From contig CANOMQ010000001.1 in NCBI GenBank assembly GCA_947567595.1, positions 141,613 to 205,612 of the forward strand: 64,000 bases of DNA, given 5' to 3'. Both the position numbers and the translations under genes were made by a program. How positions within the stretch are numbered: position 1 is the first letter of the stretch; every line of letters starts with the position of its first letter. The stretch is from an uncultured Lachnospiraceae bacterium (GTDB lineage: Bacteria > Bacillota > Clostridia > Lachnospirales > Lachnospiraceae). The notes below the pieces were generated by a model. The model made no database searches. It was not told the DNA's origin and saw only the letters and a program-made list of their open reading frames with translations. This document shows positions 18,969 to 50,800 of the stretch, piece after piece.

Positions 18969-18998
18969 TGGTTATATGGAATTCATTTGGAGGTTTGT

Positions 18999-21119
18999 AT
19001 GGAACAGTATGCTGGTGTTATTGCTTTATGCATTGTACCGGGAATATTGGCGGCGTTTGTGCATAAAAAATGTGCGGAATATGATGAGTTTGATATAAAA
19101 AATATATACTATTATAGCATTATAAATTGTTGCGTAATGTCATTTTTGAAGATGGCGTTAGGTGATGGTGGACGTACGATCTTTTCCAGCTTTCATTTGA
19201 TAGAAGGAAAAACTTATCTGCATTATGGGGTACCGCTTGTTATTTTGGCATTAATTTTGCCAATGATGATAAGCAGAATTTTAGGGAACCATAAAAGAAA
19301 CGAGCTTTTGAAGCATTTTGGCTCCACATTTTCGTTTTTAGTGGGAATTGTTTTTTTGGGAATTGGAGAAATTACAAACATCCATTGTGTGATTATTGCT
19401 ATTTGTTCTTTGGTCTTTTCGGTGATTGTGCTTTTTTTCGGGAAGGAAGCTGTTAAGTTTTACGTACCGGAAACAAAAAAAGAACGGATCGGTTTTTTGC
19501 TTCCCATTATTTTACTGTGGACAATTACGGTTTTGATTTTTGAACCAAATCAACTGCTGCTCCACAATCTTGAGGAATTTACAATACCATATGTTGATTT
19601 TTTTTGCATTATGCTTGTGGAAAGTATAGTTTTGACAGTAATTTATATGCTGATGGGGGTTTTTATTTTATCAGATCGGCAGTTTAAGGCATTTGGAACA
19701 ATAATATTTGGCGTTTGCGTGGCGGGATATATTCAGGGAAATTTTTTAAATGGAGACATGTTGTTGATGGACGGAACCGTCCAGACATGGACGAATGTGC
19801 AGAAAATCATGAACAGTATCCTATGGATTGCGATGATTGCGGTGGCATTTTTTATAAATTATAATGGACGTCATAGAACAGTCTGCAAACGGATTGTACA
19901 GTGTGTATGTATTTATATCAGCTTAATGCAGGTGCTGTCGCTTATTTTTATGATTGTAACTACAGAGTTCCCAAAGAAGGAGAATGAATTTGTACTTACC
20001 ACAACCGGTATGTTGGAATTGAATCAGAAAAATAATGTTGTTGTGTTTGTGTTGGACTGGTTTGACCGACAGATTATGGACGATATTTTGGAACAGGATC
20101 CGCAGTTTACGGATAACCTTAAGGACTTTACGGACTATACGAATACAACAAGCTGTTATGCTTATACATCATTAGCAGTACCATATCTGCTTACAGGTGT
20201 GGAGTGGGAATATGGCATGGATGCAAAGACATATTGCGATTATGCATATGAAAACAGCAGCCTTTTGCATGATATTCAAAATGAAAATTATAGTATTGGG
20301 ATATATACAGGAAGTGAGTACGTAGGAACTTCTGTCAATAATATGATTTTGAACTATTCAAATGTTTTTACACAGACGCTCGGATATAAGAAGGCTTTTG
20401 ATGTGATGAATAATACTTCAAAATATAAGATGGCACCGTTTGCCGCGAAGCAACTTTATTTTTATACTACGGATGATATCCGTCAGATTGTAATTAACAG
20501 CGGTGAATATTCGATTGACAATGATATTATATTTCATGATGAGCTGAGTCGTAATAAACTGTCAGTGGATGACTCAGACGCGTATAATGGGGCGTTCCGT
20601 TTTTACCATCTGAAAGGTGCACATCCTTTGTTTACCATGAATGAGGCGTTTGAGGAGGTCAAAGAGAATGGGACGCAGTTGTCCCAATCAAGAGGAGCCA
20701 TAAAGCTGGTTTATCAGTATATTGAAGAAATGAAGAAGCTTGGAGTGTATGATTCGGCAACCATTATTATTACGGCGGACCATGGTCAGAACAGAAGTGT
20801 TATGAAGAAAACAGAAATTGCCGGTTCTTATGGCATGACGTCTACGCCGATTTTGTATGTGAAGCTTTCCGGGGAACATCACGAAAACGGACCAAAGACA
20901 TCCACTGCACCGGTATCACATACAGAGTTTATGGCTACTGTTGCGCAGGCAGTTGGCGCAGATGAGCGAAATTACGGAAGGACTTTTGCACAGGTACCGG
21001 AGAATGAGGAAAGAAACAGAGAGTTTACCTATGTTATGCTGCCTGATAAAAAATATAAAAAATATGTTATCAGGGGAGATGCAAATGATGCGGCTGATTG
21101 GATACTGGTTGAGGAATAA
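18999..21119 (+). CDS. membrane-anchored sulfatase-fold transferase (LtaS/phosphoethanolamine-transferase-like)
   Basis: A 706-residue protein. About eight or nine membrane helices (residues 1-325) precede an outer alkaline-phosphatase-superfamily domain starting NNVVVFVLDWFDRQ near residue 345. TSCYAYTSLAVPYLLTG likely holds the nucleophile and IITADHGQN (Asp594-His595) the metal ligands. GGAGG at 18989-18993 selects ATG 18999 over an in-frame TTG at 18987. Unlike the 5'-truncated homologue at the window start, it lacks the GWTIA motif, so the two probably transfer different groups or act on different acceptors. It immediately precedes the aminoethylphosphonate module, although an operator-like repeat separates them. 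Confidence 0.8.
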   Translation: MEQYAGVIALCIVPGILAAFVHKKCAEYDEFDIKNIYYYSIINCCVMSFLKMALGDGGRTIFSSFHLIEGKTYLHYGVPLVILALILPMMISRILGNHKRNELLKHFGSTFSFLVGIVFLGIGEITNIHCVIIAICSLVFSVIVLFFGKEAVKFYVPETKKERIGFLLPIILLWTITVLIFEPNQLLLHNLEEFTIPYVDFFCIMLVESIVLTVIYMLMGVFILSDRQFKAFGTIIFGVCVAGYIQGNFLNGDMLLMDGTVQTWTNVQKIMNSILWIAMIAVAFFINYNGRHRTVCKRIVQCVCIYISLMQVLSLIFMIVTTEFPKKENEFVLTTTGMLELNQKNNVVVFVLDWFDRQIMDDILEQDPQFTDNLKDFTDYTNTTSCYAYTSLAVPYLLTGVEWEYGMDAKTYCDYAYENSSLLHDIQNENYSIGIYTGSEYVGTSVNNMILNYSNVFTQTLGYKKAFDVMNNTSKYKMAPFAAKQLYFYTTDDIRQIVINSGEYSIDNDIIFHDELSRNKLSVDDSDAYNGAFRFYHLKGAHPLFTMNEAFEEVKENGTQLSQSRGAIKLVYQYIEEMKKLGVYDSATIIITADHGQNRSVMKKTEIAGSYGMTSTPILYVKLSGEHHENGPKTSTAPVSHTEFMATVAQAVGADERNYGRTFAQVPENEERNREFTYVMLPDKKYKKYVIRGDANDAADWILVEE

Positions 21120-21205: not shown

Positions 21206-21231
21206 TTGTAAAAGTGGTATGGAGGGTTAAA

Positions 21232-22527
21232 ATGAAAAAAGTATACACTTGTTTTTGCACGGATGTGATACATGAAGGGCATCTGAATATTCTGAAAGAA
21301 GCGAAAAAATACGGTGCTGTGACAGTAGGTATTTTGAGTGACGCGGCAATGATTAAGTTTAACAGATACCCGACGATTACAATCGAAGAACGAAGGAAGC
21401 TTGTGGAAGATACAAAGCTTGCGGATGAGGTTGTTATTCAGGATGAAATCATGTATGATGAAACGATAGCACGAATGGAGCCGGATTATGTCATTCACGG
21501 TGACAACTGGTGTACGGGACCGGAGCGGGCGATTCGCCAAAACGTAATTGATAATCTTGCAAAATACGGCGGTGAATTGATTGAGGTCGGCTATACGTAT
21601 AATGAAAACGTGAAAAAGATTGACGCAAACATGAAGGAAAAGCTTGCGATGCCGGAGTACAGAAGAAAGCGTCTGCGCCAGCTGTTAAAGCTTTGTCCTG
21701 TTGTGAAAACGATAGAAGTTCACAGCGGCTTGACGGGGCTGATTGCAGAAAAGACAATTGTTGAGCATAACGGTGAATTAAATCAGTTTGATGCGATGTG
21801 GCTTTCAAGCCTGTGTGATTCGACGGCGAAGGGGAAACCTGATATTGAGCTTGTGGATATGTCATCCAGAATGCGTACGATTGATGACGTTATGGAGGTG
21901 ACGACAAAGCCGATTATTTTGGATGGGGATACGGGTGGACTGATTGAGCATTTTGTGTACAATGTACGTACGCTGGAGCGTATGGGCGTGTCAGCGGTGA
22001 TTATTGAGGATAAGACGGGATTAAAGAAAAATTCCCTGTTTGGGACAGAGGTGGAACAGACACAGGATTCGATTGAGAATTTCTGTAATAAGATTCGGGC
22101 AGGCAAGAATGCGCAGCGGACAGAAGAATTTATGATTATTGCGCGGATTGAGAGCCTGATTTTGGAGAAGGGACAGGAGGATGCATTAAAACGTGCATTC
22201 GCATATGTTGATGCAGGGACGGATGCCATCATGATTCATTCCAGAAAGAAATCGCCGGATGAGATTTTTGCGTTTTGTGATGCATTCCGCAAACAGGACA
22301 GCGATACACCGATTGTCGTGGTGCCGACTTCGTTTAACAGTGTCACGGAAGCAGAACTTGCGGCGCATGGCGTCAAGATTGTCATTTATGCAAATCAGCT
22401 TACAAGAAGCGCGTTTCCTGCAATGCAGAGTACGGCGATGGAGATTCTTAAGAATCACAGGGCATTGGAGGTTGATGAGAAGCTGATGCCGTTTAAGGAG
22501 ATTATTACATTGATTGATGAAATGTAA
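21232..22527 (+). CDS. aepX: bifunctional cytidylyltransferase / phosphoenolpyruvate phosphomutase
   Basis: A 431-residue two-domain protein. Residues 1-130 are a nucleotidyltransferase of the HxGH type (His14-Glu-Gly-His17, YVIHGDNW later). Residues 145-431 are PEP phosphomutase, which converts PEP to phosphonopyruvate and forms the C-P bond: LDGDTGG (Asp231, Asp233) and the signature EDKTGLKKNS at 259-268 fit the EDKxxxKxNS motif that separates PEP mutase from isocitrate-lyase relatives. The fused order matches Fom1-like enzymes, whose extra domain activates a phosphonate with CTP. GGAGG precedes ATG 21232. First gene of the aminoethylphosphonate module; later steps are at 25631 and 26774. 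Confidence 0.93.
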   Translation: MKKVYTCFCTDVIHEGHLNILKEAKKYGAVTVGILSDAAMIKFNRYPTITIEERRKLVEDTKLADEVVIQDEIMYDETIARMEPDYVIHGDNWCTGPERAIRQNVIDNLAKYGGELIEVGYTYNENVKKIDANMKEKLAMPEYRRKRLRQLLKLCPVVKTIEVHSGLTGLIAEKTIVEHNGELNQFDAMWLSSLCDSTAKGKPDIELVDMSSRMRTIDDVMEVTTKPIILDGDTGGLIEHFVYNVRTLERMGVSAVIIEDKTGLKKNSLFGTEVEQTQDSIENFCNKIRAGKNAQRTEEFMIIARIESLILEKGQEDALKRAFAYVDAGTDAIMIHSRKKSPDEIFAFCDAFRKQDSDTPIVVVPTSFNSVTEAELAAHGVKIVIYANQLTRSAFPAMQSTAMEILKNHRALEVDEKLMPFKEIITLIDEM

Positions 22528-22564
22528 AGCGCAGCGTTTTACTTTAGAAAATAAAGGGGAAATA

Positions 22565-23275
22565 ATGAACAGAGAAATTGGAATTATTATGGCGGCAGGG
22601 CTTGGGACGAGAATGCATCCGTTGACGGAAAAAAAACCGAAGCCGCTTTTAAAGGTATTTGGAAAACCACTGATTGAAACGGTAATTGAGGGATTGCGGA
22701 GAAGAGATATTGCGGATATTTATATTGTTGTAGGATACTTGAAGGAGCAGTTTTCTTATCTTACTGAAAAATATAATGAAGTGCATCTTGTAGAAAATCC
22801 GGATTATCTGGTCAAAAATAACATTTCATCAGTCTATGCGGTAAAAGATGTTTTGGGAACTGCAGATTGTTTTATTTGCGAGGCGGATTTGTTGATATCC
22901 GACCTTTCCGTTTTTGAGAAAGATTTGCCCTGTTCAGGATATTATGGAAAGTTGGTAAAGGGGTATTCTGACGACTGGGTGTTTGATTTGCAGGATGGTT
23001 TTATTTCCCGAGTGGGGACAGGCGGGACGGATACTTATAATATGGTTGGTATTTCGTTTTTTAAGAAAGAGGACGCCGAAATTTTGGCAGATGCAATTAT
23101 CGAAGCTTATGGATGTGAAGAAAATGCAAATCTTTACTGGGATGAAGTCGTGGACCAAAATCTTGAGAAGCTTCGCCTTAAAGTCTGGGAGGTTGAGGAG
23201 CATCAGATTGTTGAGATTGACACGGTGGAAGAACTGACGGCGATTGATGCCGCGGCTTTGGCTGAGAATGCCTGA
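22565..23275 (+). CDS. LicC/PntC-like nucleotidyltransferase
   Basis: A 236-residue sugar-phosphate nucleotidyltransferase-fold protein. It opens IGIIMAAGLGTRMHPLTEKK, the nucleotide-binding loop, followed by KPLLKVFGKPLIE, and includes LVENPDYLVKNNISSVYAV and FICEADLLISD. This pattern resembles LicC (choline-phosphate cytidylyltransferase) and PntC (aminoethylphosphonate cytidylyltransferase) more than hexose-1-phosphate enzymes. In this setting the likely reaction is CTP plus 2-aminoethylphosphonate to CMP-aminoethylphosphonate. I start at ATG 22565 behind AAAGGGGA. The gene upstream already carries a separate HxGH cytidylyltransferase domain, so which enzyme activates the phosphonate is open. 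Confidence 0.82.
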   Translation: MNREIGIIMAAGLGTRMHPLTEKKPKPLLKVFGKPLIETVIEGLRRRDIADIYIVVGYLKEQFSYLTEKYNEVHLVENPDYLVKNNISSVYAVKDVLGTADCFICEADLLISDLSVFEKDLPCSGYYGKLVKGYSDDWVFDLQDGFISRVGTGGTDTYNMVGISFFKKEDAEILADAIIEAYGCEENANLYWDEVVDQNLEKLRLKVWEVEEHQIVEIDTVEELTAIDAAALAENA

Positions 23276-23292: not shown

Positions 23293-25194
23293 ATGGAAAT
23301 TTTATATAATGTTTTTGAAGCAGTCATGAATGGCTGTTATACACTTTGCAGAAATTACGGAGCAGCAATTCTGCTTTTTACTCTGATTAGTAAAATCGTA
23401 CTGCTTCCCGTTTCTGTTTGGGTACAGAAAAACTCAATTAAAATGGTAAAGATGCAGCCGGAAATTAATTTTATCATGGTGAAGCACTTTGGGGATAAGG
23501 ATACGATCGCGGAGGAGCAGGCAGCCGTTTATAAGCGGGAAAAATATCATCCGATGGCATCGATTTTTCCGCTGATCATACAGCTTGTCTTGCTGATGTG
23601 CGTGATAGAGGTCATCAAAAGGGGAATGAATAATCCCTCCATAAGCATGGATTTTTGCGGCATTGATTTAAGCCTTGTTCCGAGTTTGGAAGGAATCGGC
23701 TTAATCTGGTCGCCGATTGTGGCAGGCTTTTCCGCATGGCTGTTGTGCGTGGCGCAGAACGCAAGCAATGTATTGCAGTCCGAGCAGTCAAAGCTCAACA
23801 AATACGGGTTGATGGCGTTTTCCGTAGGGCTTTCACTATATCTTGGCTGGTTTGTGTCCGTTGGCGTGGCGCTTTACTGGACGGCAAGCAACGTGTTTGC
23901 CATTATACAGCTTTACATTCTCAACTGGCTGATTAATCCGAAAAAATATGTGGATTATGAGGCGCTGGAAGCGAGCAAAAAGGAGTTGGAACAGCTTGGC
24001 AACATAGGCGGCAGGAAGCGCAGACGTTTTGGGGATCCTGAGGCAAAGAGGGAGCGTCAGGATTATAAACGCTTTTTTTCCATTGTCAATAAGCATCTGG
24101 TATTTTACTCGGAGAGCAGCGGATTTTATAAATATTATAAAGGCTTTATTGAGTATCTGATACAAAATACAAATCTGGCAATTCACTATATCACAAGCGA
24201 TCCTGATGATGTGATTTTTGAGATTGCAAAGGAGAAAACACAGATTAAGCCTTATTATATCGGGGAAAAACGATTGATAACGCTGATGATGAAGCTTGAG
24301 GCGGACATGATGGTGATGACGATGCCTGACCTTGAAAATTATCACATCAAGCGCAGCTATATAGATAAGAATATCGAATACGTAAACGTGCGTCATGAGA
24401 TGGACAGCCTGAATCTCACATACCGTACGGGTGCACTGGACCATTACGATACGGTTTTTTGCACCGGAAAGCATCATAAGGAAGAGGTTGAAAAGCTGGA
24501 AGCGGCGTATGGACTGCCAAAAAAGAAGATTGTCGAGTGCGGCTATCCCCTGCTTGATGAGATGCGCGCGGATTATGAAAAACGCACTGATTTGGCGCAT
24601 GACAAAAAACGTATTTTGATCGCACCTTCGTGGCAGGAAGGCAATATTGTCGACAGCTGTCTTGAAAAAATACTTGATAATTTAAAAGGAGAGGGTTATT
24701 ATATAACGGTACGACCGCATCCGCAGCATGTACGCCATAGAGGCGAATTTATGGAGCAGTTGAAAAAACGGTATGAACAGGATGACGACATTGCAATACA
24801 GACGGATTTTTCTTCGAACAGTACGGTGTTTGAGGCGGATCTTGTGATTACGGACTGGTCAAGCATCGCCTATGAATATGCGTATACGACAAGGAAGCCG
24901 GTACTTTTTATCAATACACCGATGAAAGTGATGAATCCGGAATATCAGAAAATTGATACGGTTCCCATTAACATCCTGATACGGGAGGAGCTTGGCTGTT
25001 CTCTTGATACGGATAAACTGGACAGGCTTTCCGAACGTGTGAGTATGCTGCTTGCGCATAGCAAAGAATATTATGATAAGATTGGTTCTTTTGTGGATGA
25101 ATATGTATATCATTTAGGAACAAGCGCGGAGGTTGGCGCAAAATATATGATCGAACAGATACAGAAAAAGATTCAGGAAAAGAAAAAAGGATAA
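23293..25194 (+). CDS. YidC/Oxa1-like membrane domain fused to a TagF/CDP-glycerol glycerophosphotransferase-like domain
   Basis: A 633-residue fusion. Residues 1 to about 220 look like a YidC/Oxa1 insertase: GAAILLFTLISKIVLLPVSV then KMVKMQPEI, four further hydrophobic stretches, and ALYWTASNVFAIIQLYIL at the end. Lys34 stands where Bacillus-type YidC has its groove arginine. Residues 265-620 look like the TagB/TagF CDP-alcohol phosphotransferase fold: VRHEMDSL (His368), TVRPHPQHV (His476) and VITDWSSIAYEYAY (518-531), corresponding to the catalytic histidines and DYSS-type motif. The obvious substrate here is CMP-aminoethylphosphonate made by the neighbours, with a lipid-linked or surface glycan as acceptor. 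That job is inferred from position; the domain calls rest on motifs. Confidence 0.83.
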   Translation: MEILYNVFEAVMNGCYTLCRNYGAAILLFTLISKIVLLPVSVWVQKNSIKMVKMQPEINFIMVKHFGDKDTIAEEQAAVYKREKYHPMASIFPLIIQLVLLMCVIEVIKRGMNNPSISMDFCGIDLSLVPSLEGIGLIWSPIVAGFSAWLLCVAQNASNVLQSEQSKLNKYGLMAFSVGLSLYLGWFVSVGVALYWTASNVFAIIQLYILNWLINPKKYVDYEALEASKKELEQLGNIGGRKRRRFGDPEAKRERQDYKRFFSIVNKHLVFYSESSGFYKYYKGFIEYLIQNTNLAIHYITSDPDDVIFEIAKEKTQIKPYYIGEKRLITLMMKLEADMMVMTMPDLENYHIKRSYIDKNIEYVNVRHEMDSLNLTYRTGALDHYDTVFCTGKHHKEEVEKLEAAYGLPKKKIVECGYPLLDEMRADYEKRTDLAHDKKRILIAPSWQEGNIVDSCLEKILDNLKGEGYYITVRPHPQHVRHRGEFMEQLKKRYEQDDDIAIQTDFSSNSTVFEADLVITDWSSIAYEYAYTTRKPVLFINTPMKVMNPEYQKIDTVPINILIREELGCSLDTDKLDRLSERVSMLLAHSKEYYDKIGSFVDEYVYHLGTSAEVGAKYMIEQIQKKIQEKKKG

Positions 25195-25212: not shown

Positions 25213-25473
25213 ATGAAAAAAGGAATTTTGAAATTGTTGGGGTTTGGATATGTGGGATTATGCGGAATGCTTTTGTTTGGAGCAAATGCGAAAGCGTATA
25301 TTGATCCATCCGTGGCAACCTATGCGATTCAGGCGGTTGCAGGTATTGTGATTGCAATCGGTGCGGCTGTCGGTATTTATTTCAGAAGGGCAAAGAAAAA
25401 GCTGAACGATAAGCTTGGCATTGACGAGAACAAAAATAAGGAAGTGGAATCAGACGATATTATTGTGAAATAG
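25213..25473 (+). CDS. small single-pass membrane protein with YIDP motif
   Basis: An 86-residue protein. Residues 1-28 form a signal-like helix ending AKA, immediately followed by YIDPSVATYAIQ, a second helix (about 38-58) and a basic-then-acidic cytoplasmic tail. Small proteins with a signal sequence followed by AYIDP occur beside surface-glycan genes in Firmicutes, but I know of no defined function. A GGAGG site lies ahead of the ATG, and it starts 18 bases after the YidC-TagF-like fusion, so it is probably a partner of that protein at the membrane. It ends the first half of the phosphonate operon, just before a terminator-like hairpin. Confidence 0.75.
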   Translation: MKKGILKLLGFGYVGLCGMLLFGANAKAYIDPSVATYAIQAVAGIVIAIGAAVGIYFRRAKKKLNDKLGIDENKNKEVESDDIIVK

Positions 25474-25573: not shown

Positions 25574-25630
25574 GGACGCCCGGCGCATGCGTAGGGAAAA
25601 TGAAGTTTGTGGAAGGAGTTGGCAATACAA

Positions 25631-26758
25631 ATGGAAATTAAGAGAAATATTTTATTGAATCCCGGACCGGCAACGACGACGGATACCGTAAAAATGGCAC
25701 AGGTGGTTCCTGATATCTGTCCGCGTGAGAAAGAGTTTGCATCCATGATGAAAAAAATGCGTGAGGATTTGGTGCGCATTGTGCATGGCGATTTGAATCG
25801 ATATACGTCGGTACTGTTTTGCGGGTCCGGAACGCTGAATATTGATGTATGCATCAATTCGCTTTTACCGGAAGGGAAAAAGGTTCTTATTATTAACAAT
25901 GGCGCTTACAGTGCGAGGGCGGCGGAGATTTGCGCGTATTACAATCTGCCCTTTATTGACTTGCAGTTTCCGGTAGATGAATTGCCGGATTTGGATAAGG
26001 TGGAACAGGTTTTAAAAGAAAATCGAGATATTGCGTTAGTCCATACAACACATAATGAGACGGGAACAGGAATCTTAAATCCGATACGGGAGATTGGTGC
26101 GCTTGTACACAAATATGGTGCGGTGTTTACGGTAGATACGACCTCTACGTATGCCATGCGCCCCATAGACATTGAGAGGGACAACATTGATTTTTGTATG
26201 GCGTCTGCACAAAAGGGACTTATGGCAATGACAGGGCTGTCCTTTATTGTCGGAAATACACAGCTTATAAAAGAATCGGCAGCGTATCCGAAGCGTTCTT
26301 ATTATTGTAATTTATACTTACAGTATCATTTTTTTGAAACGACGGGAGAAATGCATTTTACACCGCCCGTTCAGACAATTTATGCGGCACGGCAGGCGCT
26401 TGACGAGTATTTTGCGGAGGGTGAGGAAGCAAAATGGAAGAGGCATCTGAGCGTGTTTGAGGCGATTCATGCAGGACTTGAAAAGCTTGGTTTTCAGGAT
26501 ATCATTAAGAGAGAACTGCAGGCAGGGCTTGTCGTATCGGTAAAATATCCGGATGACGAGAACTGGGATTTTGAAAAGGTACATGATTACTGTTACGAGC
26601 GCGGGTTTACAATCTATCCCGGTAAAGTATCGACACAAAATACGTTTCGTCTTTGTGCACTCGGGGCGATTACACCAAAGGACATTGAAGATTTTTTTGT
26701 GGTCTTGGAGGATGCGCTTAGGACATATCATATTCAGGTACCGGTTCGGTATGCATAG
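25631..26758 (+). CDS. phnW: 2-aminoethylphosphonate aminotransferase (class V, PLP)
   Basis: A 375-residue class V aminotransferase. ILLNPGPATTTDTVKMAQ at the N-terminus is the family opening, LFCGSGTLNIDVCINSLL is the cofactor phosphate-binding region, VDTTSTYAMRPI contains the aspartate that contacts the pyridine ring, and MASAQKGLMAMTG holds Lys195, the expected PLP lysine. In this operon it should turn phosphonoacetaldehyde into 2-aminoethylphosphonate using alanine or another amino donor, the reverse of the catabolic PhnW reaction. ATG 25631 is preceded by AAGGAG at 12 bases; a nearer TTG at 25619 overlaps the ribosome site. The gene for the preceding step follows directly. Confidence 0.88.
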   Translation: MEIKRNILLNPGPATTTDTVKMAQVVPDICPREKEFASMMKKMREDLVRIVHGDLNRYTSVLFCGSGTLNIDVCINSLLPEGKKVLIINNGAYSARAAEICAYYNLPFIDLQFPVDELPDLDKVEQVLKENRDIALVHTTHNETGTGILNPIREIGALVHKYGAVFTVDTTSTYAMRPIDIERDNIDFCMASAQKGLMAMTGLSFIVGNTQLIKESAAYPKRSYYCNLYLQYHFFETTGEMHFTPPVQTIYAARQALDEYFAEGEEAKWKRHLSVFEAIHAGLEKLGFQDIIKRELQAGLVVSVKYPDDENWDFEKVHDYCYERGFTIYPGKVSTQNTFRLCALGAITPKDIEDFFVVLEDALRTYHIQVPVRYA

Positions 26759-26773
26759 GATGAGGGGGATAAG

Positions 26774-27904
26774 ATGAAAGCAGGTTTTTTCTTACAGGAA
26801 ATTCAAAATATTGGTATCCGCACGATTACGGGGGTTCCGGATTCCACTTTAAAACAGTTTTGTGATGCAGTCAGGTTGGATGACGGAAAAACATTTCACC
26901 ATTATGTGACGGCGAATGAGGGAGCGGCTGTCGGACTTGCTACAGGGGAGTATTTGGCATCAGAACGTCCTTGTCTGGTATATTTGCAAAATTCCGGACT
27001 TGGAAATATTATCAATCCGCTTGCATCCATTGCAAACCGGGAGGTATACGGAATTCCCATGCTGTTTGTGATTGGCTGGCGCGGCGAACCGGGAAAGAAG
27101 GATGAACCGCAGCACGTTTATCAGGGCAAAGTGACGTGCGCGCTTTTAGAGGTTATGGATGTGCCTTACTGCGTGATTGACGATACAACGAAGGAAGCGC
27201 AGATGACAAAAATGCTGTCAGAGGCAAAAGCGCTTATGGCTGAGGGCAGGCAGTATGCGGTAATTGTGAAAAAAGGTACCTTTGAAAAGGGGCAGGGAGC
27301 GGTTTGGGAGAATGGCTACAGCCTTGTGCGCGAACAGGCGCTGAGGGTGATTTTGGAGAATCTTTTTCAGGAGTCGTTTCTTGTTTCCACTACAGGGAAG
27401 ATATCGAGGGAGCTTTATGAGCAAAGTGACGCATTGTATGGAAATCATGAACGGATTTTTATGACCGTCGGAGGAATGGGGCATGCGTCGATGATTGCAT
27501 ATGGCATGGCGCAGGCGGATGCGTCCAGGCAGATTGTCTGCGTTGACGGTGACGGAGCGGTGATGATGCATATGGGGGCATTGGCGTTTCTTGCGAAGCA
27601 GTCGCCAAAAAATTTACTGCATATCGTAATCAACAATGCGGCGCACGAGTCTGTCGGTGCGATGCCTACAGGCTTTAGCGGTAAGACATATGCACAGGTT
27701 GCGGCGGCATGTGGATATCAAAATGTATGCACGGTTCGAACAGAGGAGGAATTAAAAGAGGCTGTTTTAAAGGCAAAAGAGAAACAGGAGCTTTCGCTGA
27801 TTGAAGTTTTGGTATCGCTTGAATCGAGAGCGGATTTGGGCAGGCCAAAGGAGACTGCAAGGGAAAACAGGATACAGTTTATGGATGCGGTTTTGCGGCA
27901 TTAA
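26774..27904 (+). CDS. aepY: phosphonopyruvate decarboxylase (thiamine diphosphate)
   Basis: A 376-residue thiamine-diphosphate enzyme. TITGVPDSTLKQFCDAV and YVTANEGAAVGLATG (Glu49 is the expected cofactor-activating glutamate) mark the pyrimidine-binding half; CVDGDGAVMMHMGALAF (Gly-Asp-Gly at 259-261) with IVINNAAHESVGAMPTGF is the diphosphate- and magnesium-binding motif. Length and motifs match phosphonopyruvate decarboxylases such as those of bialaphos and AEP pathways. The reaction makes phosphonoacetaldehyde and pulls the unfavourable PEP mutase step forward. A GGGGGA site precedes the ATG, 15 bases after the transaminase. It is the last gene of the operon, ending 29 bases before a strong terminator. 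Confidence 0.93.
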   Translation: MKAGFFLQEIQNIGIRTITGVPDSTLKQFCDAVRLDDGKTFHHYVTANEGAAVGLATGEYLASERPCLVYLQNSGLGNIINPLASIANREVYGIPMLFVIGWRGEPGKKDEPQHVYQGKVTCALLEVMDVPYCVIDDTTKEAQMTKMLSEAKALMAEGRQYAVIVKKGTFEKGQGAVWENGYSLVREQALRVILENLFQESFLVSTTGKISRELYEQSDALYGNHERIFMTVGGMGHASMIAYGMAQADASRQIVCVDGDGAVMMHMGALAFLAKQSPKNLLHIVINNAAHESVGAMPTGFSGKTYAQVAAACGYQNVCTVRTEEELKEAVLKAKEKQELSLIEVLVSLESRADLGRPKETARENRIQFMDAVLRH

Positions 27905-27973: not shown

Positions 27974-28489
27974 TCATAGCAATACAACATTTTGCCCACT
28001 ATTATTTCCATGACGGATAGAGCGGTTCGGAATAAGCAGTCCAAGAATATGTTCCAGATGTATACATCCAATCTCTTCATATCTGCTGTCCTTACTTGGG
28101 GCATAGTTATCACCCATTACAAAAAATTGGTTATCGCCAAGAATTAGTTCTTTAGAAGCAGTGCCAGCAAAATTAACGGTTCCGCATATATACGGACTCT
28201 TAACTCCGTTTACCAGCACATCGCCATTGGTGATTAAAATGCTGTCACCCGAAACGGCAATGATGCGTTTTATCATGATGCAATCAAGTGCAGGGCAATA
28301 AAAGGCAATAACATCGCCGCATTGAAAAGTTTTAGCACGTTTGTCAATGATGGCTAGCTGCATATTTTTGTAAGATGGGACCATTGAGTTACCTTGAACC
28401 AAGGTAACTTGATATAAATTTGCTGATATAAACAGAGTGATGAGTAGCACCGCTATATAAATAATAAAGGTTTTGTTGTATTGTTTCAT
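27974..28489 (-). CDS. lepB: signal peptidase I
   Basis: A 171-residue type I signal peptidase (S26). One N-terminal membrane helix (about 8-27) precedes VQGNSMVPSYKN with the catalytic serine, CIMIKRIIAVSGDSIL with the catalytic lysine, and FVMGDNYAPSKDSRY, the conserved box D/E. It cleaves secretory signal peptides outside the membrane. AAAGGAG lies ahead of the start. It is the third gene of a minus-strand group with an MBOAT acyltransferase and an SGNH protein; whether it serves those proteins or is a general enzyme cannot be told. Confidence 0.93.
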   Translation of the reverse strand: MKQYNKTFIIYIAVLLITLFISANLYQVTLVQGNSMVPSYKNMQLAIIDKRAKTFQCGDVIAFYCPALDCIMIKRIIAVSGDSILITNGDVLVNGVKSPYICGTVNFAGTASKELILGDNQFFVMGDNYAPSKDSRYEEIGCIHLEHILGLLIPNRSIRHGNNSGQNVVLL

Positions 28490-28552: not shown

Positions 28553-30037
28553 TTATCTGAGAGAAGGGATACCGATGGAGGCGGTGTCAAATGAAACACT
28601 GTCAATTACGTCTTTTGTCATATTATCGTATACAACAATGTTTAATCCCTTGTAGTTTTTCGCATATTCCTTTTCATCAAGCTGTATTGAGCATGAAGGG
28701 CGCTTCTTTTCATTTATGACAGAAGTGATCTGATACTGGACGATACCGCTGCGTATTGTTCCCTTGGCTTCCAATGATATATTGCTGACATTCTCATAAA
28801 TATTTTCAGGAGTAATTATTGCAATATAAGTTGTACTATCTCCTTTGTTTAAGTTAAAGGATAATCCAAGATCGTTAAACCCTTGGCTGACTGTTTCATC
28901 GAGGCAGTCTATTCCATCGTTTTTTAAGGTGATAAAGATGGAATATTGTTCTTTCATTAATTTCAGACAGTCCAAATAGGTGTTAATATCGGGAACGTGT
29001 TTTAGGTTTGAACTGAGCTGTAGGCAGGAATATGCATAACGTGTGTCTTCCCATGCATCATTTATCTGCGGCGCAATATCATAATCGGTTTGGAGAATTT
29101 TGCCGAGATAATTTGTGATTTTTATTGCGCCTTTCAGGGAGGGGTGTCCGGTATCAATCATATCTTCCTCGAAAGAAAAGGCAATGTCATTGTAGAGTTG
29201 CATTGTGTTAAAATCATAAAATGGAACGTTTAATGTGTCTGCAAGTTGCTGGGTAGCATTATGCTCATTTATTTTCTGGGAAGTGGTAGGATTCTTAACA
29301 AGAATAAGCGTGATTCCGTTTTCGTTGCAAAGTGCATTTATTTTTTCCATATACTGTTGCATTAGTTCCGGAATATCGGCTGTTTCAGAAGATTCACCAA
29401 TTAATAAAGGTACATAATCGTTTTCGTTAATCTGGTTGAACATTGTGCTAAATCCCTTCATCTCATAATGACCACTCATTTGGGAATAAGAGAAATCGTC
29501 CTCTGACAATTCACTCCATCTTGTGTGGAAACGCTGGTTTGTGAAATAATAGCTGCTTTTGCTTTGATTTGTGTCAATTGTGCAGATATCGTCCACCGCC
29601 TGCCGTTTCACGTTGCCCCATTTCATATAATCAATGGCTTTTCTGATATATGGTTCGGAGGAGTCGAACTGGTTGTTAAATAAATAGAACGTTTCCAATA
29701 CGACGGCTTTTGGTTTTTGAAAACGCAGCGCTTCTTTTAACCAATAATAAGATGTTACAAGATTTTGCTGTTCGCAGCATAAATTGTAACTTGTAATGCC
29801 ATAGTTGTTATAAAGTTCCTGGGGGATAAAAGCGGTTGCCCCATGGCTACTTCCTAAAAACAAAACATTGACGGAGTTTTCGGGCATTTCATAAAATCCG
29901 AGGTAGGTAGATGTCGTTGGCCATGAAGTATTAATAAAATACTTTGGAACAAGCGTTCGATTGATTATAAAAAGTATGATACCCAAAAGAAAGAGAAAAA
30001 GGCTGCCCTTTATGGCAAAAACAATGTTTTTTTTCAT
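28553..30037 (-). CDS. SGNH-fold acylation partner protein (DltD/AlgX-like)
   Basis: A 494-residue protein with one N-terminal membrane helix and a large outer domain. NVLFLGSSHGATAF supplies the serine block of an SGNH hydrolase/acyltransferase fold and DTGHPSLKGA gives the Asp-x-x-His block. About 130 C-terminal residues (from about 365) look like a separate beta-rich domain. With the upstream MBOAT gene this forms a DltB/DltD- or AlgI/AlgX-like pair that moves acyl groups across the membrane onto a surface polymer. I start at the ATG at 30037: GGAGG lies in the last codons of the MBOAT gene, whose stop is only 4 bases away. Longer starts would overlap that gene. Confidence 0.82.
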   Translation of the reverse strand: MKKNIVFAIKGSLFLFLLGIILFIINRTLVPKYFINTSWPTTSTYLGFYEMPENSVNVLFLGSSHGATAFIPQELYNNYGITSYNLCCEQQNLVTSYYWLKEALRFQKPKAVVLETFYLFNNQFDSSEPYIRKAIDYMKWGNVKRQAVDDICTIDTNQSKSSYYFTNQRFHTRWSELSEDDFSYSQMSGHYEMKGFSTMFNQINENDYVPLLIGESSETADIPELMQQYMEKINALCNENGITLILVKNPTTSQKINEHNATQQLADTLNVPFYDFNTMQLYNDIAFSFEEDMIDTGHPSLKGAIKITNYLGKILQTDYDIAPQINDAWEDTRYAYSCLQLSSNLKHVPDINTYLDCLKLMKEQYSIFITLKNDGIDCLDETVSQGFNDLGLSFNLNKGDSTTYIAIITPENIYENVSNISLEAKGTIRSGIVQYQITSVINEKKRPSCSIQLDEKEYAKNYKGLNIVVYDNMTKDVIDSVSFDTASIGIPSLR

Positions 30038-30041
30038 AAGC

Positions 30042-31460
30042 TTAAAATCCTCCATATATAAAATCTTGTGTATGAAATTCAAAACCATATGTTCCGAAGA
30101 CATAAACTGCGGTGATTGCGGCGATATAGATAGACCATCGGATAATCATAGGCTGCGCGATAATGATATCCCGGATGCATATTTTTTCCTGCAGTGTACT
30201 GCTGACAGATAAAATTCCGACGGAAGCGAAGAGGATTAAAAGCTCTTTCCACGAAAGACCTAAGGTGAAGAGGGAATCGTCAAAAAAGATCCATGGATTG
30301 TGAACCGTAAAAACAGAGCCAATCATCGAAAACGCAGTATTAAGGTTGTCTGCTCGGAAGATGATCCATGCCAGTGTCACGAGAAAGAAGGTAAAAACTC
30401 TCCGAATGTGTTTCTTGAAAAAGTTGTCAGGAGCAAATCCAAGCAGTTTATAAAGGGATTCCCGGAAATTCAGCGTAAATGCACCAATTATCTGATAAAA
30501 TGCGTGAAAGAGTCCCCACGCAATATATTGAAAGCCGTTTCCATGCCACATGCCGCTTACAAGAAACGTGATAATAAGGTTGACGTATTTACGAAGCGTT
30601 CCCTTTCTGTTTCCTCCAAGCGGTATATATACGTAATCCTTTAACCATGTGCTTAAAGAAATGTGCCATCGCCGCCAGAAGTCATGGATTGAGGATGCAA
30701 AATAGGGATGATTAAAATTGTCAGTCAGATAAATCCCGAATAATGCGGCAGCTCCCTGAGCCAAAGTCACACATGCGAGGAAGTCCGCATAAAGTTGTAT
30801 GCTGTATAGGCTTCCTCCCAAAATAACATAACAGCCTCGATATAGTTCATGGTTATCGAAAACAGTGTTGACAATTACCGCCGCTTTGTCGGCAACCATC
30901 AGTTTGAGAAAAAATCCCCATAAGATAAGCTGCAGCGCTTTGACAAAATTTTTTTCTTGAAATGGATGTCCTGTAAACAGTTGTATGCCAAGCTGTTCGT
31001 ATCTAGGAATTGGTCCTTGAAGGATTTGCGGGAAAAAGGAAACAAATAAAGCATATCTAAAAAAATTAGTTTGCGGGTATATTTTTCCGGTGTAAATATC
31101 CGACAAATATGCAAGGATTTGCAGTGTAAAAAAGGACAGTCCAAGAGGGGCGGTCAATGTATCCGGCGAAAAAACGGTTTTATAAAAAAATAATGGGAGC
31201 GTGACGAGTATGATAAATAGAATAAAAATATATTTCCGATAACGAACCGTCCGTGTACACGCGCAAGAAATAATACGGGAGCCGCAATAAGAAAGAATAA
31301 TCATTGCAATGAATGGAACAACTGCCTCTTTTGCAGCGATGAAATAAAATAAAAAACTGCCAGCAAGCAGGGAATACCATCTGATGTTCTTTGGAAGAAT
31401 ATAGTATAATATAACAATACAGAGCAAAAAAAGATTGTAATTCAGCGATACAAAATTCAT
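30042..31460 (-). CDS. MBOAT family O-acyltransferase (DltB/AlgI-like)
   Basis: A 472-residue membrane-bound O-acyltransferase. MNFVSLNYNLFLLCIVILYY at the start, SFFPQILQGPIPRYEQL in the middle, FWRRWHISLSTWLKDYVYIPLGG and the conserved SGMWHGN with the family histidine are all present. These proteins take acyl groups from the cytoplasm and hand them to an outer SGNH partner, here the next gene. AGGAGGT lies 11 bases before the ATG on the minus strand. The acyl donor and target polymer are unknown; the surrounding locus suggests a surface glycan. Confidence 0.95.
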   Translation of the reverse strand: MNFVSLNYNLFLLCIVILYYILPKNIRWYSLLAGSFLFYFIAAKEAVVPFIAMIILSYCGSRIISCACTRTVRYRKYIFILFIILVTLPLFFYKTVFSPDTLTAPLGLSFFTLQILAYLSDIYTGKIYPQTNFFRYALFVSFFPQILQGPIPRYEQLGIQLFTGHPFQEKNFVKALQLILWGFFLKLMVADKAAVIVNTVFDNHELYRGCYVILGGSLYSIQLYADFLACVTLAQGAAALFGIYLTDNFNHPYFASSIHDFWRRWHISLSTWLKDYVYIPLGGNRKGTLRKYVNLIITFLVSGMWHGNGFQYIAWGLFHAFYQIIGAFTLNFRESLYKLLGFAPDNFFKKHIRRVFTFFLVTLAWIIFRADNLNTAFSMIGSVFTVHNPWIFFDDSLFTLGLSWKELLILFASVGILSVSSTLQEKICIRDIIIAQPMIIRWSIYIAAITAVYVFGTYGFEFHTQDFIYGGF

Positions 31461-47897: not shown

Positions 47898-50800
47898 ATG
47901 AAAAATAAAAAGGCATTTGGATTGTATGGGACGAATAAGAGAAAAACAGCCGGCAGAAGAAAGAAATATCAGGCTGATGAATATACAGAGGAGATGTATG
48001 AGGAGTTTGGTCAGGACGACGACGCGTATTATGAGGACGATGACAGCGAGGAGTATGACGATGACAGCGAGGAGTATGACGATGACAGCGAGGAGTATGA
48101 CGATGACAGCGAGGAGTATGACGATGATGATGCGTACATAGTCGGGTATCACGACGCGGCACAGTATTATGAAGAGGAGGCGACTGGTCAGGAGTCCGAG
48201 GAGGACAGCTACGAGCCGCAGGAGGATTATTACGGGGAGGCGGATTATTACGCGCAGGAGCTTGATGAGCGTGATGATGTGCAGGAGGATTATTACGAGG
48301 AGGAAGCGTTTTTTGAGGAGGAGGCTTCCGAATATTATGCCGAGGAGCTGTCCGGGCAGGAGCCGGAGTATGAAGCGGAGGAGGACGCACAGGAGTCGGA
48401 ATACTATGCGGACGATTACGCGGAGGATACGGAGAGCTATTATGAGGAGGACGGCGCGTATTACGACGAGGAGGGGGAATACTACGAATCGGAGGAGTAC
48501 GGCGACGAGTATGATGAGGACTATGAGGACTATGATGAGGACAGCTTTGACACGGCGTATGACGGCGTAAACAACAGCTACAGTGCGTCCTTTGACGGCG
48601 GATATGAGGAGGCGTATGGGGAGCCGCAGGATACGGTTTCGTTTGGGACGGATTTTTCGGGAAAAATGCAGGCGCTGCTGCACAACCTGAAAAAGCACGC
48701 GGCAGACATGACGCCGCTTGACGCGGTGATTGCGACGACAGGGATTGTGGTTTTGGTGGCAATCCTTGTGCTGGTGAGCATGTTCTTTTCCAATAGGCGC
48801 GTGAACGAGCACATTGAGGCAATTGCGCCAATCGGGACGGAGCTTGCGGGTATCGGCATTGTGGGCGAGGGCGGTCTTTCCTCTATCACAGACGCGGCGC
48901 TTTCGGGCGGCTTTGGCAGTGAGCAGGAGAGCAGCTCGGAAATCATGTCGGAGACAGGTGTTGCAGGCGGTAAGGTCAGCGTCAGCTTTGTTTCCGTGGA
49001 GAAGGATTTAAAAATCCGCTTTACGGACGTAAACAGCGGTGAGCTGATTACCGGAACGAAATTCGAGGTAAAGCTTGTCAACACATCAAGCAAGAAGGAG
49101 CTTGTCCTGACGGACGACGATATGGACGGTATTATCTATGCGGATAATATCAAGGCAGGCACCTTTGACGCGGTGATTACGTCAACGGACAAATACCAGT
49201 TCCCCTCCGTTGCGCAGCAGGTGACGGTCAAGGATAAGGTGGAGTATGTGGTCATCAATGTGCAGGACGAGGTAAAGAGCGAGAAGCAGGTCAATGTGGC
49301 GGCGGAGGATACGCAGAAAAAGGACGCGGCGGCAGAGGAGGTCAAGCTGACGGATACGGTCGAGTGGGTGGAGTCAACCAAGACGCCAATCGGCGGCACG
49401 GAGAGCTATCTTCCGGTTGACAAGAATACGATACCCGATCCCTCGAAGGTATCCCGGGCAGCGGCGAGAATGCTGTTTGACACGATAAACGTTTCCCTTG
49501 ACAAATCAAGTCTTTCCTTAAAGACCGGCTCGACGGCAAAGCTCTCGGGGACGTCTTTTAGCGACAAGACGGAAGGGGATACGGAGTACAAATACACGAC
49601 GGAGTGGAAGTCCTCCGACGAAGCCGTGGCAACGGTGGACAGCGGCATGGTGACGGCAAAGGCGGAAGGCAAGGCTACCATTACGTATACGGTTACAAGG
49701 AAAACGATTACGACGACGTATGAGCCGGAAAATCCGGTCGAGGAGACGGTGCAGATTGACCTTGAGGACTATGAGAAGCTTTCCGACGCGGAGAAGGGAA
49801 AGTGCACGCCGATAAAGGACGACGCGGATCAGACGATTGCCTATGACTACAAGCGCACAATCGAGCCGGAGAAGAAGACAAGCGAGACGACGGATACGGC
49901 GAGTGCTTCGTGCGAGGTGACGGTGGAGGCGGCGAAGCTGTCCTCGGCGAAGCTGGAGCTTTCGGCGGACAAGACGAGCTGTAGTGTGAATGAGACGCTT
50001 ACGGTGAAGCCGTCAAAGCTTGTCTACACCAAGGACGACAACAGCACGGAGACGGTTACGCAGAATTTCCCGGCGGTTACGTGGTCAAGCAGTGACAAGG
50101 CGGTTGCGGAGGTGGACGCTTCCGGCGTCGTGACCGGAAAAAAGGCGGGTACAGCCGTTATTACAGGACAGATGAAGGGCATTCAGGGCGCTGACGGTAA
50201 GGAGCTTGACATCAAGGCGCAGATTAATATCACGATAAATGCCGATAATACGCTTGTGGTGGCACTTGACCGGACGGACGGCGTTTATATCGCGTTGGGT
50301 GGTACGACGACGCTTACGGCGACGGTGAGCGGTTATATCAGCGACGCGGGCGTGACATGGGAGACCTCCGACGCAAAGGTGGCGACGGTGGACGAGAAGG
50401 GCGTTGTGACAGGCGTATCAGCGGGTAGTGCGGTGATTTCGGCGGTCACAAAGGAAAAGGACGGAAAAAACAATCCGGCAAAGGCGTCCTGCACGGTGAC
50501 GGTCAACTCGAATGCGTCTGGCGACACGGTCACGAAATTAAAGGACGCAAACGGAAACCAGATTTATTTAAAGAACAACGACGGCAGCTACAAGGAGGCA
50601 GTTTACGCGGATTATTACGCGGCGTCGGAATTTTATATCAAAACTGCGGCACAATATAAATACACGGGCTGGCAGACCATAGATGGCAAGACTTATTTTT
50701 ACGACAAAAACGGCAATCCGGTCACGGGGGCGCAGGTCATTCAGGGCGTTACCTACAATTTCGGCACTGACGGGGCGATTGCGACGACGGTGAACGGCTC

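What the first reader, a model, noticed from the sequence alone, without database searches (positions are those of the whole stretch)
23293..25194. YidC-like insertase domain fused to a TagF-like phosphotransferase inside a phosphonate operon
One gene joins a YidC/Oxa1-like membrane domain (residues 1-220) to a TagB/TagF-type domain with the expected histidines (His368, His476) and the ITDWSS motif. Neighbours make and probably CMP-activate 2-aminoethylphosphonate. TagF-type enzymes use CDP-alcohols, so this may be the missing transferase that puts aminoethylphosphonate on a surface glycan. The YidC part may anchor the enzyme or present a lipid-linked acceptor in its groove, where Lys34 replaces the usual arginine. 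I know of no described function for this fusion.
Basis: partly seen in the sequence, partly recalled or inferred. Interest (0 to 1): 0.88.

Follow-up and report, generated by a model that had tools for sequence, protein, structure and literature searches.

The report
YidC-containing surface-tailoring membrane module
In gut bacteria of the Clostridium group, a membrane domain of the protein-inserting kind is built into a set of enzymes that lie on both faces of the membrane and may carry a small amine-bearing phosphorus group, here aminoethylphosphonate, from inside the cell to a sugar polymer outside; I found no description of such a set.

Summary
The fusion is real: 633 aa, 60KD_IMP (22-211) plus Glyphos_transf (267-605), both over Pfam cut-off, modelled at pLDDT 88.8, with YidC and TagF/TarL among the fold matches. 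It lies in a complete CMP-aminoethylphosphonate operon. It is not phosphonate-specific: of 80 related loci, 80 carry YidC and 11 carry PEP mutase in the DNA held; the phosphonate label changes at least 10 times on the tree. The fusion is one part of a four-part module: YidC-like domain, TagF-like domain, a tiny 'YIDPS' membrane protein (window 25213-25473) and an LtaS-like enzyme (18987-21119). The parts are permuted: YidC-TagF + YIDP + LtaS-like; LtaS-like-YidC-TagF in one chain (3 loci); YIDP-LtaS-like (11 loci); YidC-LtaS-like + YIDP-TagF (class B). The tiny protein occurs in exactly the same 16 of 299 genomes as the fusion. Best reading: a two-sided machine in which TagF loads a lipid from a CMP donor, YidC passes it across, and the LtaS-like enzyme transfers the group to surface glycan. 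The module is well supported; the relay is inference.

The parts
18987..21119 (+). 710-aa membrane enzyme, alkaline-phosphatase/sulfatase fold, LtaS-like; proposed outer-face phospho(no)transferase
   Evidence: Matches the N-terminal domain of the L046 triple fusion, E 7.5e-50; profile of the family best matches LtaS 2w5q among solved structures, E 3.1e-8; D357 65/65, T394 61/65, H546 65/65, D598-H599 65/65 in class A rows and triple fusions, 13/13 each in class B. Against: Pfam Sulfatase is below cut-off for this copy (21.7 against 25), and phmmer with this copy alone found no solved match up to E 1.
21214..22527 (+). cytidylyltransferase-like domain fused to phosphoenolpyruvate mutase (makes the C-P bond)
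   Evidence: TIGR02320 410.9 bits, cut-off 319.55; PF01467 residues 17-107
22514..23275 (+). LicC/PntC-like nucleotidyltransferase, probable CTP:AEP cytidylyltransferase
   Evidence: PF00483 and PF12804; best solved match LicC 1jyk, E 5.7e-38
23293..23949 (+). YidC/Oxa1-like domain of the fusion (about residues 1-219)
   Evidence: PF02096 E 1.8e-28; Foldseek match to B. halodurans YidC 3wo6, TM by target 0.76, rmsd 3.2, 215 columns
24082..25107 (+). TagF-like CDP-alcohol phosphotransferase domain (about residues 264-605)
25213..25473 (+). 86-aa 'YIDPS' small membrane protein: N-terminal signal-like stretch ending AKA, conserved YIDPS, one further hydrophobic segment, charged tail
   Evidence: Sequence and hydropathy; its profile A4 rings in exactly the 16 of 299 family genomes that have the fusion; no Pfam family over cut-off, best Phage_Coat_B 20.7 bits against 23.5
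25607..26758 (+). 2-aminoethylphosphonate aminotransferase (PhnW/AepZ)
   Evidence: TIGR03301 463.4 bits, cut-off 360.8
26774..27904 (+). phosphonopyruvate decarboxylase
   Evidence: TIGR03297 446 bits, cut-off 312.5
27974..28489 (-). type I signal peptidase, proposed to trim the YIDPS protein before its Tyr
   Evidence: TIGR02227 over cut-off; such a gene is in 35 of 42 loci whose YIDPS protein was scored as having a signal and in 2 of 23 scored without one, p 3.5e-9

Best explanation
The fusion is the membrane-and-cytoplasm half of a four-part, two-sided envelope-tailoring machine. Inside, PEP mutase, decarboxylase and aminotransferase make 2-aminoethylphosphonate and the LicC/PntC-like enzyme makes CMP-AEP (shown at the level of family membership only). 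The TagF-like domain moves the AEP group from CMP to a lipid in the inner leaflet (inferred). The YidC-like domain, placed between an inner and an outer catalytic domain, lets that lipid cross the membrane (inferred). The LtaS-like enzyme outside, with a conserved threonine as likely nucleophile, takes the group off the lipid and puts it on the surface glycopolymer built by the neighbouring glycosyltransferases (inferred). The YIDPS protein is a dedicated membrane partner whose mature N-terminus faces outward after signal-peptide removal (inferred). In relatives the same machine is fed by a different cytidylyltransferase-PLP-enzyme module, probably giving CDP-ethanolamine or a close relative (inferred); AEP is its phosphonate analogue.
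For: Four domains permuted among chains: YidC-TagF (80/80 class A loci); LtaS-like-YidC-TagF in one ORF in L042, L046, L089, all three Pfam domains over cut-off in L046; YIDP-LtaS-like in 11 loci; YidC-LtaS-like, 60KD_IMP plus Sulfatase both over cut-off in L105, L106 and L117, beside YIDPGTG-TagF in class B. The small protein and the fusion occupy the identical 16 of 299 genomes. Catalytic-type residues of both enzymes are kept in classes A and B. Hydropathy of L046 fits a two-sided layout: five hydrophobic segments, the sulfatase domain, the YidC segments, then TagF; that the YidC end is cytoplasmic and LtaS-type domains lie outside is recalled. Signal and signal peptidase go together. PEP mutase and the NTP-transferase/PLP-enzyme protein share none of the 80 loci (11 and 25, p 0.011). 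In the one example checked (L026) that protein's first part is closest to LicC and PntC-AEPT and its PLP part to a threonine-phosphate-decarboxylase-like enzyme. E. coli YidC scrambled lipids in vitro (PMC10491306, passages). 2-AEP was found on a Clostridioides difficile flagellin glycan (PMC8861647, passages).
Against: No biochemistry: donor, lipid acceptor and direction are inferred. 20 of 80 class A loci and 2 of 16 class B loci show no LtaS-like gene in the DNA held, 11 of the 20 with over 14 kb held; the profile used was built from rows of these same loci. Class C (L148) has an unfused TagF-like protein in a phosphonate operon with two sulfatase-fold proteins and no YidC in the 14 kb held, so YidC is not always needed. 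One class B locus, L108, holds a 151-aa cytidylyltransferase-like protein without PEP mutase, which could serve a glycerol-type donor. TagF/TarL use polyprenyl-linked acceptors (recalled), which could make a lipid donor unnecessary. The YIDP link between classes A and B rests on a short motif (hhalign 77.6%, at most 1.45% in 30 column shuffles). The AlphaFold output does not test how the two domains sit together, and the triple fusion could not be folded.
Confidence: 0.42

Rival explanations
1. The TagF-like domain adds the aminoalkyl-phospho(no) group directly, in the cytoplasm, to a polyprenyl-linked glycan, as TagB/TagF do with glycerol phosphate; an ordinary exporter flips the finished glycan. 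The YidC domain is a membrane dock, and the LtaS-like enzyme adds another group to the same polymer.
For: TagF and TarL are the top structural matches and use polyprenyl-linked acceptors (recalled). Class C has no YidC in the DNA held. A cluster with a TagH-like exporter ATPase (one member checked) lies in 7 loci. C. difficile cd0241-cd0244 add phospho-N-methylthreonine to a flagellin GlcNAc (PMC8861647, passages); that CD0244 is TagF-like is recalled.
Against: Does not explain why YidC and the YIDP element change places between the TagF-like and the LtaS-like enzymes, nor the one-chain triple fusions.
Confidence: 0.33
2. The YidC domain is a private insertase or assembly factor for the machine's own membrane parts (the YIDPS protein, the LtaS-like enzyme), fused to keep them together.
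For: It is a clear YidC relative; YIDPS proteins are small, the kind of client YidC inserts (recalled).
Against: All 10 genomes tested also hold a separate YidC of housekeeping size; the groove residue is K in class A (25 of 25 rows) but N or Q in class B (19 of 19 rows, four of them duplicates), so no common charge requirement.
Confidence: 0.1
3. A conventional glycerol- or ribitol-phosphate teichoic-acid polymerase that happens to carry a YidC anchor and to lie beside phosphonate genes.
For: PF04464 membership and TagF/TarL fold; a 151-aa cytidylyltransferase-like protein without PEP mutase in L108.
Against: PEP-mutase link p 2.5e-7 and 3.3e-7; LicC/PntC-type cytidylyltransferases as neighbours; none of the cluster representatives scanned was a glycerol-phosphate cytidylyltransferase, but most single neighbours were not scanned.
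Confidence: 0.08

Closest known systems
TagF / TarL wall teichoic acid polymerases (PF04464)
YidC/Oxa1 insertases (PF02096)
   Same: Sequence and fold
   Different: Own group, apart from housekeeping YidC; fused to a phosphotransferase; a housekeeping-size YidC is also present in 10 of 10 genomes
LtaS lipoteichoic acid synthase / EptA-type phosphotransferases
   Same: Family profile best matches LtaS among solved structures; D, T, H, D-H pattern kept; hydrophobic segments before the catalytic domain
   Different: Fused or linked to YidC, TagF-like or YIDP parts; not a member of a named NCBIfam family; donor lipid unknown
PntC / Lic phosphonyl-tailoring pathway (Rice 2019, PMC6697681; abstract, two sections and passages read)
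   Same: PEP mutase fused to a cytidylyltransferase plus a LicC-like enzyme, for CMP-AEP
   Different: That paper points to LicD-like phosphotransferases or glycosyltransferases nearby and its main text holds neither 'YidC' nor 'TagF'; here a TagF-YidC-LtaS-like module takes that place
C. difficile flagellin type A cluster cd0240-cd0244 (PMC8861647, passages read)
   Same: Phospho-amino group on a sugar in a clostridium, with 2-AEP also found on the glycan
   Different: Three of its genes, cd0244 among them, have no defined function in that paper; the passages seen name no YidC or LtaS-like part

Membership tests
Glyphos_transf / TagF-like (PF04464) | profile match over curated cut-off | tested here: met
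   60.6 bits against 22.1
Glyphos_transf / TagF-like (PF04464) | two catalytic histidines | tested here: met
   His368, His476 invariant in 74/74 class A; 14/14 class B and L148. Their identity with the catalytic histidines of TagF is recalled, not aligned here
Glyphos_transf / TagF-like (PF04464) | transfer from a CDP-alcohol | not testable with these tools
   neighbourhood only
YidC/Oxa1 (PF02096) | profile and fold | tested here: met
   E 1.8e-28; 3wo6 TM by target 0.76
YidC/Oxa1 (PF02096) | positive residue in the groove | tested here: met
   Lys34 in 74/74; but class B has N/Q in 19 of 19 rows and 8 of 10 housekeeping YidCs have Y or N, so the feature is not diagnostic here
YidC/Oxa1 (PF02096) | membrane-protein insertase activity | not testable with these tools
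   -
LtaS/EptA-type transferases (gene 18987-21119) | threonine nucleophile and metal ligands | tested here: met
   T394 61/65 class A and 13/13 B; D357, H546, D598, H599 65/65 and 13/13; which residues are catalytic is by analogy, recalled
LtaS itself | profile membership as LtaS | tested here: not met
   no NCBIfam hit for the window protein; only a distant family-profile match to solved LtaS
AEP biosynthesis | PEP mutase, phosphonopyruvate decarboxylase, AEP aminotransferase | tested here: met
   three equivalog cut-offs passed
PntC (AEP cytidylyltransferase) | LicC-type fold and AEP preference | tested here: inconclusive
   closest solved match LicC; substrate not testable
One functional unit (module) | co-occurrence of fusion and YIDPS protein | tested here: met
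   identical sets, 16 of 299 genomes, on one contig in 14 of 16

The most novel reading that the evidence does not exclude
An Oxa1/YidC-superfamily domain has been turned from protein insertion into the trans-membrane step of an envelope-tailoring machine: it hands a lipid loaded with aminoethylphosphonate (or ethanolamine phosphate in relatives) from a TagF-like enzyme inside to an LtaS-like enzyme outside, with a signal-peptidase-trimmed YIDPS subunit. This would be a dedicated lipid-scrambling use of a YidC fold and the missing route from CMP-AEP to the bacterial surface.
Probability: 0.35. Interest if true: 0.95.

Novelty: categorically new. Interest (0 to 1): 0.86.

Why it matters
The paper that defined PntC says that most bacterial phosphonate capacity serves cell-surface tailoring and that the later tailoring steps remain enigmatic (PMC6697681, abstract). 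This module gives a concrete set of genes for those steps. It also suggests a physiological use for the lipid scrambling that YidC-type insertases show in vitro. The module is carried by gut Clostridia (Roseburia inulinivorans DSM 16841 among them, L067), so phospho(no)-amine surface groups of gut commensals become open to genetic test. The parts are separable: each can be deleted and the surface read by 31P NMR or mass spectrometry.

Tried and rejected
Phosphonate-specific transferase: rejected as the general role, since 69 of 80 loci lack PEP mutase in the DNA held and 7 of 26 fusion genomes of the relatives set show no PEP mutase over cut-off. Recent copy of the housekeeping YidC: rejected; class A, class B and housekeeping domains are three supported groups, though the unrooted tree cannot say whether A and B share one origin. 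Simple anchor: weakened by class B. A literature precedent for the fusion: searches listed none in the held open-access library; most subscription papers are not in it, so absence there is weak. A paper on the archaeal kinase/decarboxylase was sought for the PLP part and the passages seen decided nothing. Alignment A6 for the triple fusion looked worse than A5 and was dropped. The phylum-wide search shows the family is rare: 6 of 398 genomes at E 1e-20.

Full report

2. The operon. Upstream lie a cytidylyltransferase-like/PEP mutase fusion and a LicC-like nucleotidyltransferase; downstream an AEP aminotransferase and a phosphonopyruvate decarboxylase. The LicC-like enzyme's best solved match is LicC. 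This is a full set for CMP-AEP, as described for PntC pathways (PMC6697681; abstract, two sections and passages read). Its main text holds neither 'TagF' nor 'YidC'.

3. Distribution. A profile of the TagF domain found 399 relatives in genome contigs; the best 80 loci were kept (L025-L104, 3-21 kb each). YidC-type sequence lies before the TagF domain in 80 of 80. 76 were read as single ORFs with both domains; 73 of these plus the window make alignment A2 (L027, L035 and L081 were left out), in which Lys34, His368, His476, Asp521, Trp522 and Ser523 are invariant. In a sample of 299 genomes of the family, about one per genus, 16 have a fusion-type match. I drew the line at E 1e-60 after seeing a gap between 3.5e-69 and 9.3e-52; the YidC part was checked directly in 6 of these 16 genomes, in the others only by open-frame length. 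In a phylum sample any match at E 1e-20 is rare: 6 of 398 genomes.

4. Phosphonate link: real but not exclusive. Family sample: PEP mutase in 32 of 299; 10 of the 16 fusion genomes have it (p 2.5e-7), 8 of them within 5 kb. Relatives set: 26 of 60 have the fusion-type match (a 27th, G013, is weak and was dropped), 22 have PEP mutase over cut-off, 19 have both, 18 of these within 4 kb; 7 have the fusion alone and 3 PEP mutase alone. In the 80 loci, 11 hold PEP mutase. On a tree of 74 TagF domains the phosphonate label (13 rows, two of them truncated loci with only the aminotransferase or decarboxylase) needs 12 changes, at least 10 forced by supported branches; 278 of 500 label shuffles do as well. 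Truncated contigs hide some labels, so these counts are rough. 25 of the 80 loci instead carry a 500-900 aa protein that holds a LicC/PntC-like domain and clusters with class I PLP enzymes; none of the 25 is among the 11 PEP-mutase loci (p 0.011). Only one of the 25 (L026) was checked by Pfam. Its PLP part best matches a threonine-phosphate-decarboxylase-like structure (6oux) and its other part LicC and the PntC-AEPT-type fusion 6pd1. A DUF2284 cluster (4 loci, one member checked) and a methyltransferase cluster (6 loci, two checked) are further neighbours. I read this as a swap of cargo: AEP in some, probably ethanolamine phosphate or a relative in others. Against it, L108 of class B holds a 151-aa cytidylyltransferase-like protein without PEP mutase, which could mean a glycerol-type donor.

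5. A missed gene. Behind the fusion, at 25213-25473, lies an 86-aa protein with a signal-like start ending AKA, then YIDPS, a hydrophobic segment and a charged tail. A profile (window and loci among its seeds) finds it within 1.2 kb downstream in 68 of 80 loci and somewhere in the held DNA in 77 of 80 (not in L047, L048, L084). In the 299-genome sample it is in exactly the 16 genomes that have the fusion and in none of the other 283, on the same contig in 14 of 16 (not G194, G309); one genome (G341) has four of each. No Pfam family passes its cut-off.

6. A third part. The most frequent neighbour cluster (63 of the loci, but it also swept in the small YIDPS proteins) is a membrane protein of the sulfatase/alkaline-phosphatase fold. 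A profile built from it finds it in 60 of 80 loci, within 2 kb or fused in 53 of 76. The window's 710-aa protein at 18987-21119 belongs to it. The family profile matches LtaS best among solved structures, though the window copy alone matches none. Thr394 and the D/H/D/H set are conserved, as in LtaS/EptA transferases (recalled).

7. The parts look like one machine. In L042, L046 and L089 the sulfatase-fold part, YidC and TagF are one ORF of 1180, 1200 and 1466 aa; all three Pfam domains pass in L046, while in L089 the Sulfatase model itself is not listed and L042 was not scanned; the motif residues are present in all three. In 11 loci the YIDP protein is the N-terminal part of the sulfatase-fold enzyme. 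A second class, found by the same TagF profile at E 7e-40 to 9e-52 in 14 genomes (16 loci fetched), lacks YidC on TagF: the 14 TagF ORFs read (those of L111 and L119 were not called) all have YIDPGTG near their start, and beside most of them lies a YidC-plus-sulfatase protein. BLAST with class A enzymes finds the sulfatase fold in 13 of 16 loci; a profile that includes class B rows finds it in 14 of 16, not in L107 and L108. A YidC domain on that protein was confirmed in 12 of 16 loci. The YIDP elements of the two classes match by profile comparison at 77.6%, against at most 1.45% in 30 column-shuffled controls. Class B keeps both TagF histidines in 14 of 14. It has the same kinds of donor genes: PEP mutase in L105, L107 and L109 (and L149), and LicC-like proteins of about 590-600 aa in L110, L113, L114 and L117, of which only L117 also matched the class I PLP part.

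8. Signal peptidase. A type I signal peptidase gene is in 38 of 80 class A loci and 0 of 16 class B loci (p 1.5e-4). Within class A it goes with YIDPS proteins that have a signal: 35 of 42, against 2 of 23 scored without one (p 3.5e-9). Of those two, L072 has a signal-like stretch in the printed frame and was miscalled by my first-Met rule; L046 is probably the same. Of 12 loci scored as fused (L066 among them, whose 305-residue frame is too short for the enzyme), 1 has a peptidase; the 3 loci without the small protein have none. This predicts that the mature small protein starts at Tyr29.

9. YidC domain. In a tree of 54 rows (49 different) the class A, class B and housekeeping YidC domains are three groups (99/96, 100/100, 100/96). 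10 of 10 genomes examined also hold a separate YidC ORF of 408-465 aa. So the fused domain is a specialised lineage, and it is found on either of the two enzymes. That is hard to square with a mere anchor for TagF.

10. Mechanism. The cheapest reading that uses all parts is a relay: CMP-AEP to a lipid by TagF, crossing through YidC, transfer to glycan by the LtaS-like enzyme. The layout fits: in L046 five hydrophobic segments precede the sulfatase domain, YidC follows, TagF comes last. E. coli YidC and yeast Oxa1 and Get1 scrambled lipids in vitro in PMC10491306 (preprint, passages). A clostridial glycan carrying 2-AEP is known (PMC8861647, passages). None of the transfer steps is shown. The main rival is direct action of TagF on a polyprenyl-linked glycan, with YidC as dock; class C (L148), an unfused TagF-like protein in a phosphonate operon with two sulfatase-fold proteins, keeps that rival alive.

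11. Verdict. Observation confirmed; interpretation partly supported. The module, as a unit of four linked parts with exchangeable donors, is well supported by independent lines; its chemistry is not. The parts are of known families, but I found no described system that puts a YidC domain between an inner and an outer phosphotransferase (searches; open-access library only).

Noticed in passing
window 47898-51395 (+): 1165-aa protein with a GH25 lysozyme domain, Big_2 and a choline-binding repeat; such a repeat may read phospho-amine groups on the envelope, so it could bind this machine's product.
   Followed up: no
window 28553-31460 (-): DltB-like MBOAT acyltransferase (472 aa) with an unannotated 516-aa neighbour on the opposite strand, looking like a further glycan O-acylation pair.
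   Followed up: no
L050 and L051 (two contigs of one record set, CAMWXD01): One genome holds two copies of the fusion, one near PEP mutase, the other near the cytidylyltransferase-PLP-enzyme gene: perhaps two cargoes in one cell.
   Followed up: partly
L148 8298-12721: Unfused TagF-like protein (36% identical) inside a full phosphonate operon, followed by two sulfatase-fold proteins of 478 and 484 aa and no YidC in the 14 kb held.
   Followed up: partly
L069, L080, L101, L039: A DUF2284-type protein (checked in L101) between a PLP enzyme and the LicC-like gene beside the fusion; perhaps a step of the alternative donor's synthesis.
   Followed up: no
L028, L051, L088, L095, L099, L102: A small methyltransferase (checked in L028 and L095) near the fusion, hinting at methylated cargo.
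   Followed up: no
L108, 151-aa ORF: A cytidylyltransferase-like protein without PEP mutase in a class B locus; a different donor is possible there.
   Followed up: no
L055 17514-18422 and five more loci: A protein distantly matching a cholinephosphotransferase model (NF045866, 69.8 bits, cut-off 225) is in a cluster of 6 loci; a second transferase may share the donor.
   Followed up: no
housekeeping YidC of related genomes, e.g. L122 (own genome): The groove arginine of textbook YidC is Tyr or Asn in 8 of 10 housekeeping-size YidCs of these genomes.
   Followed up: partly
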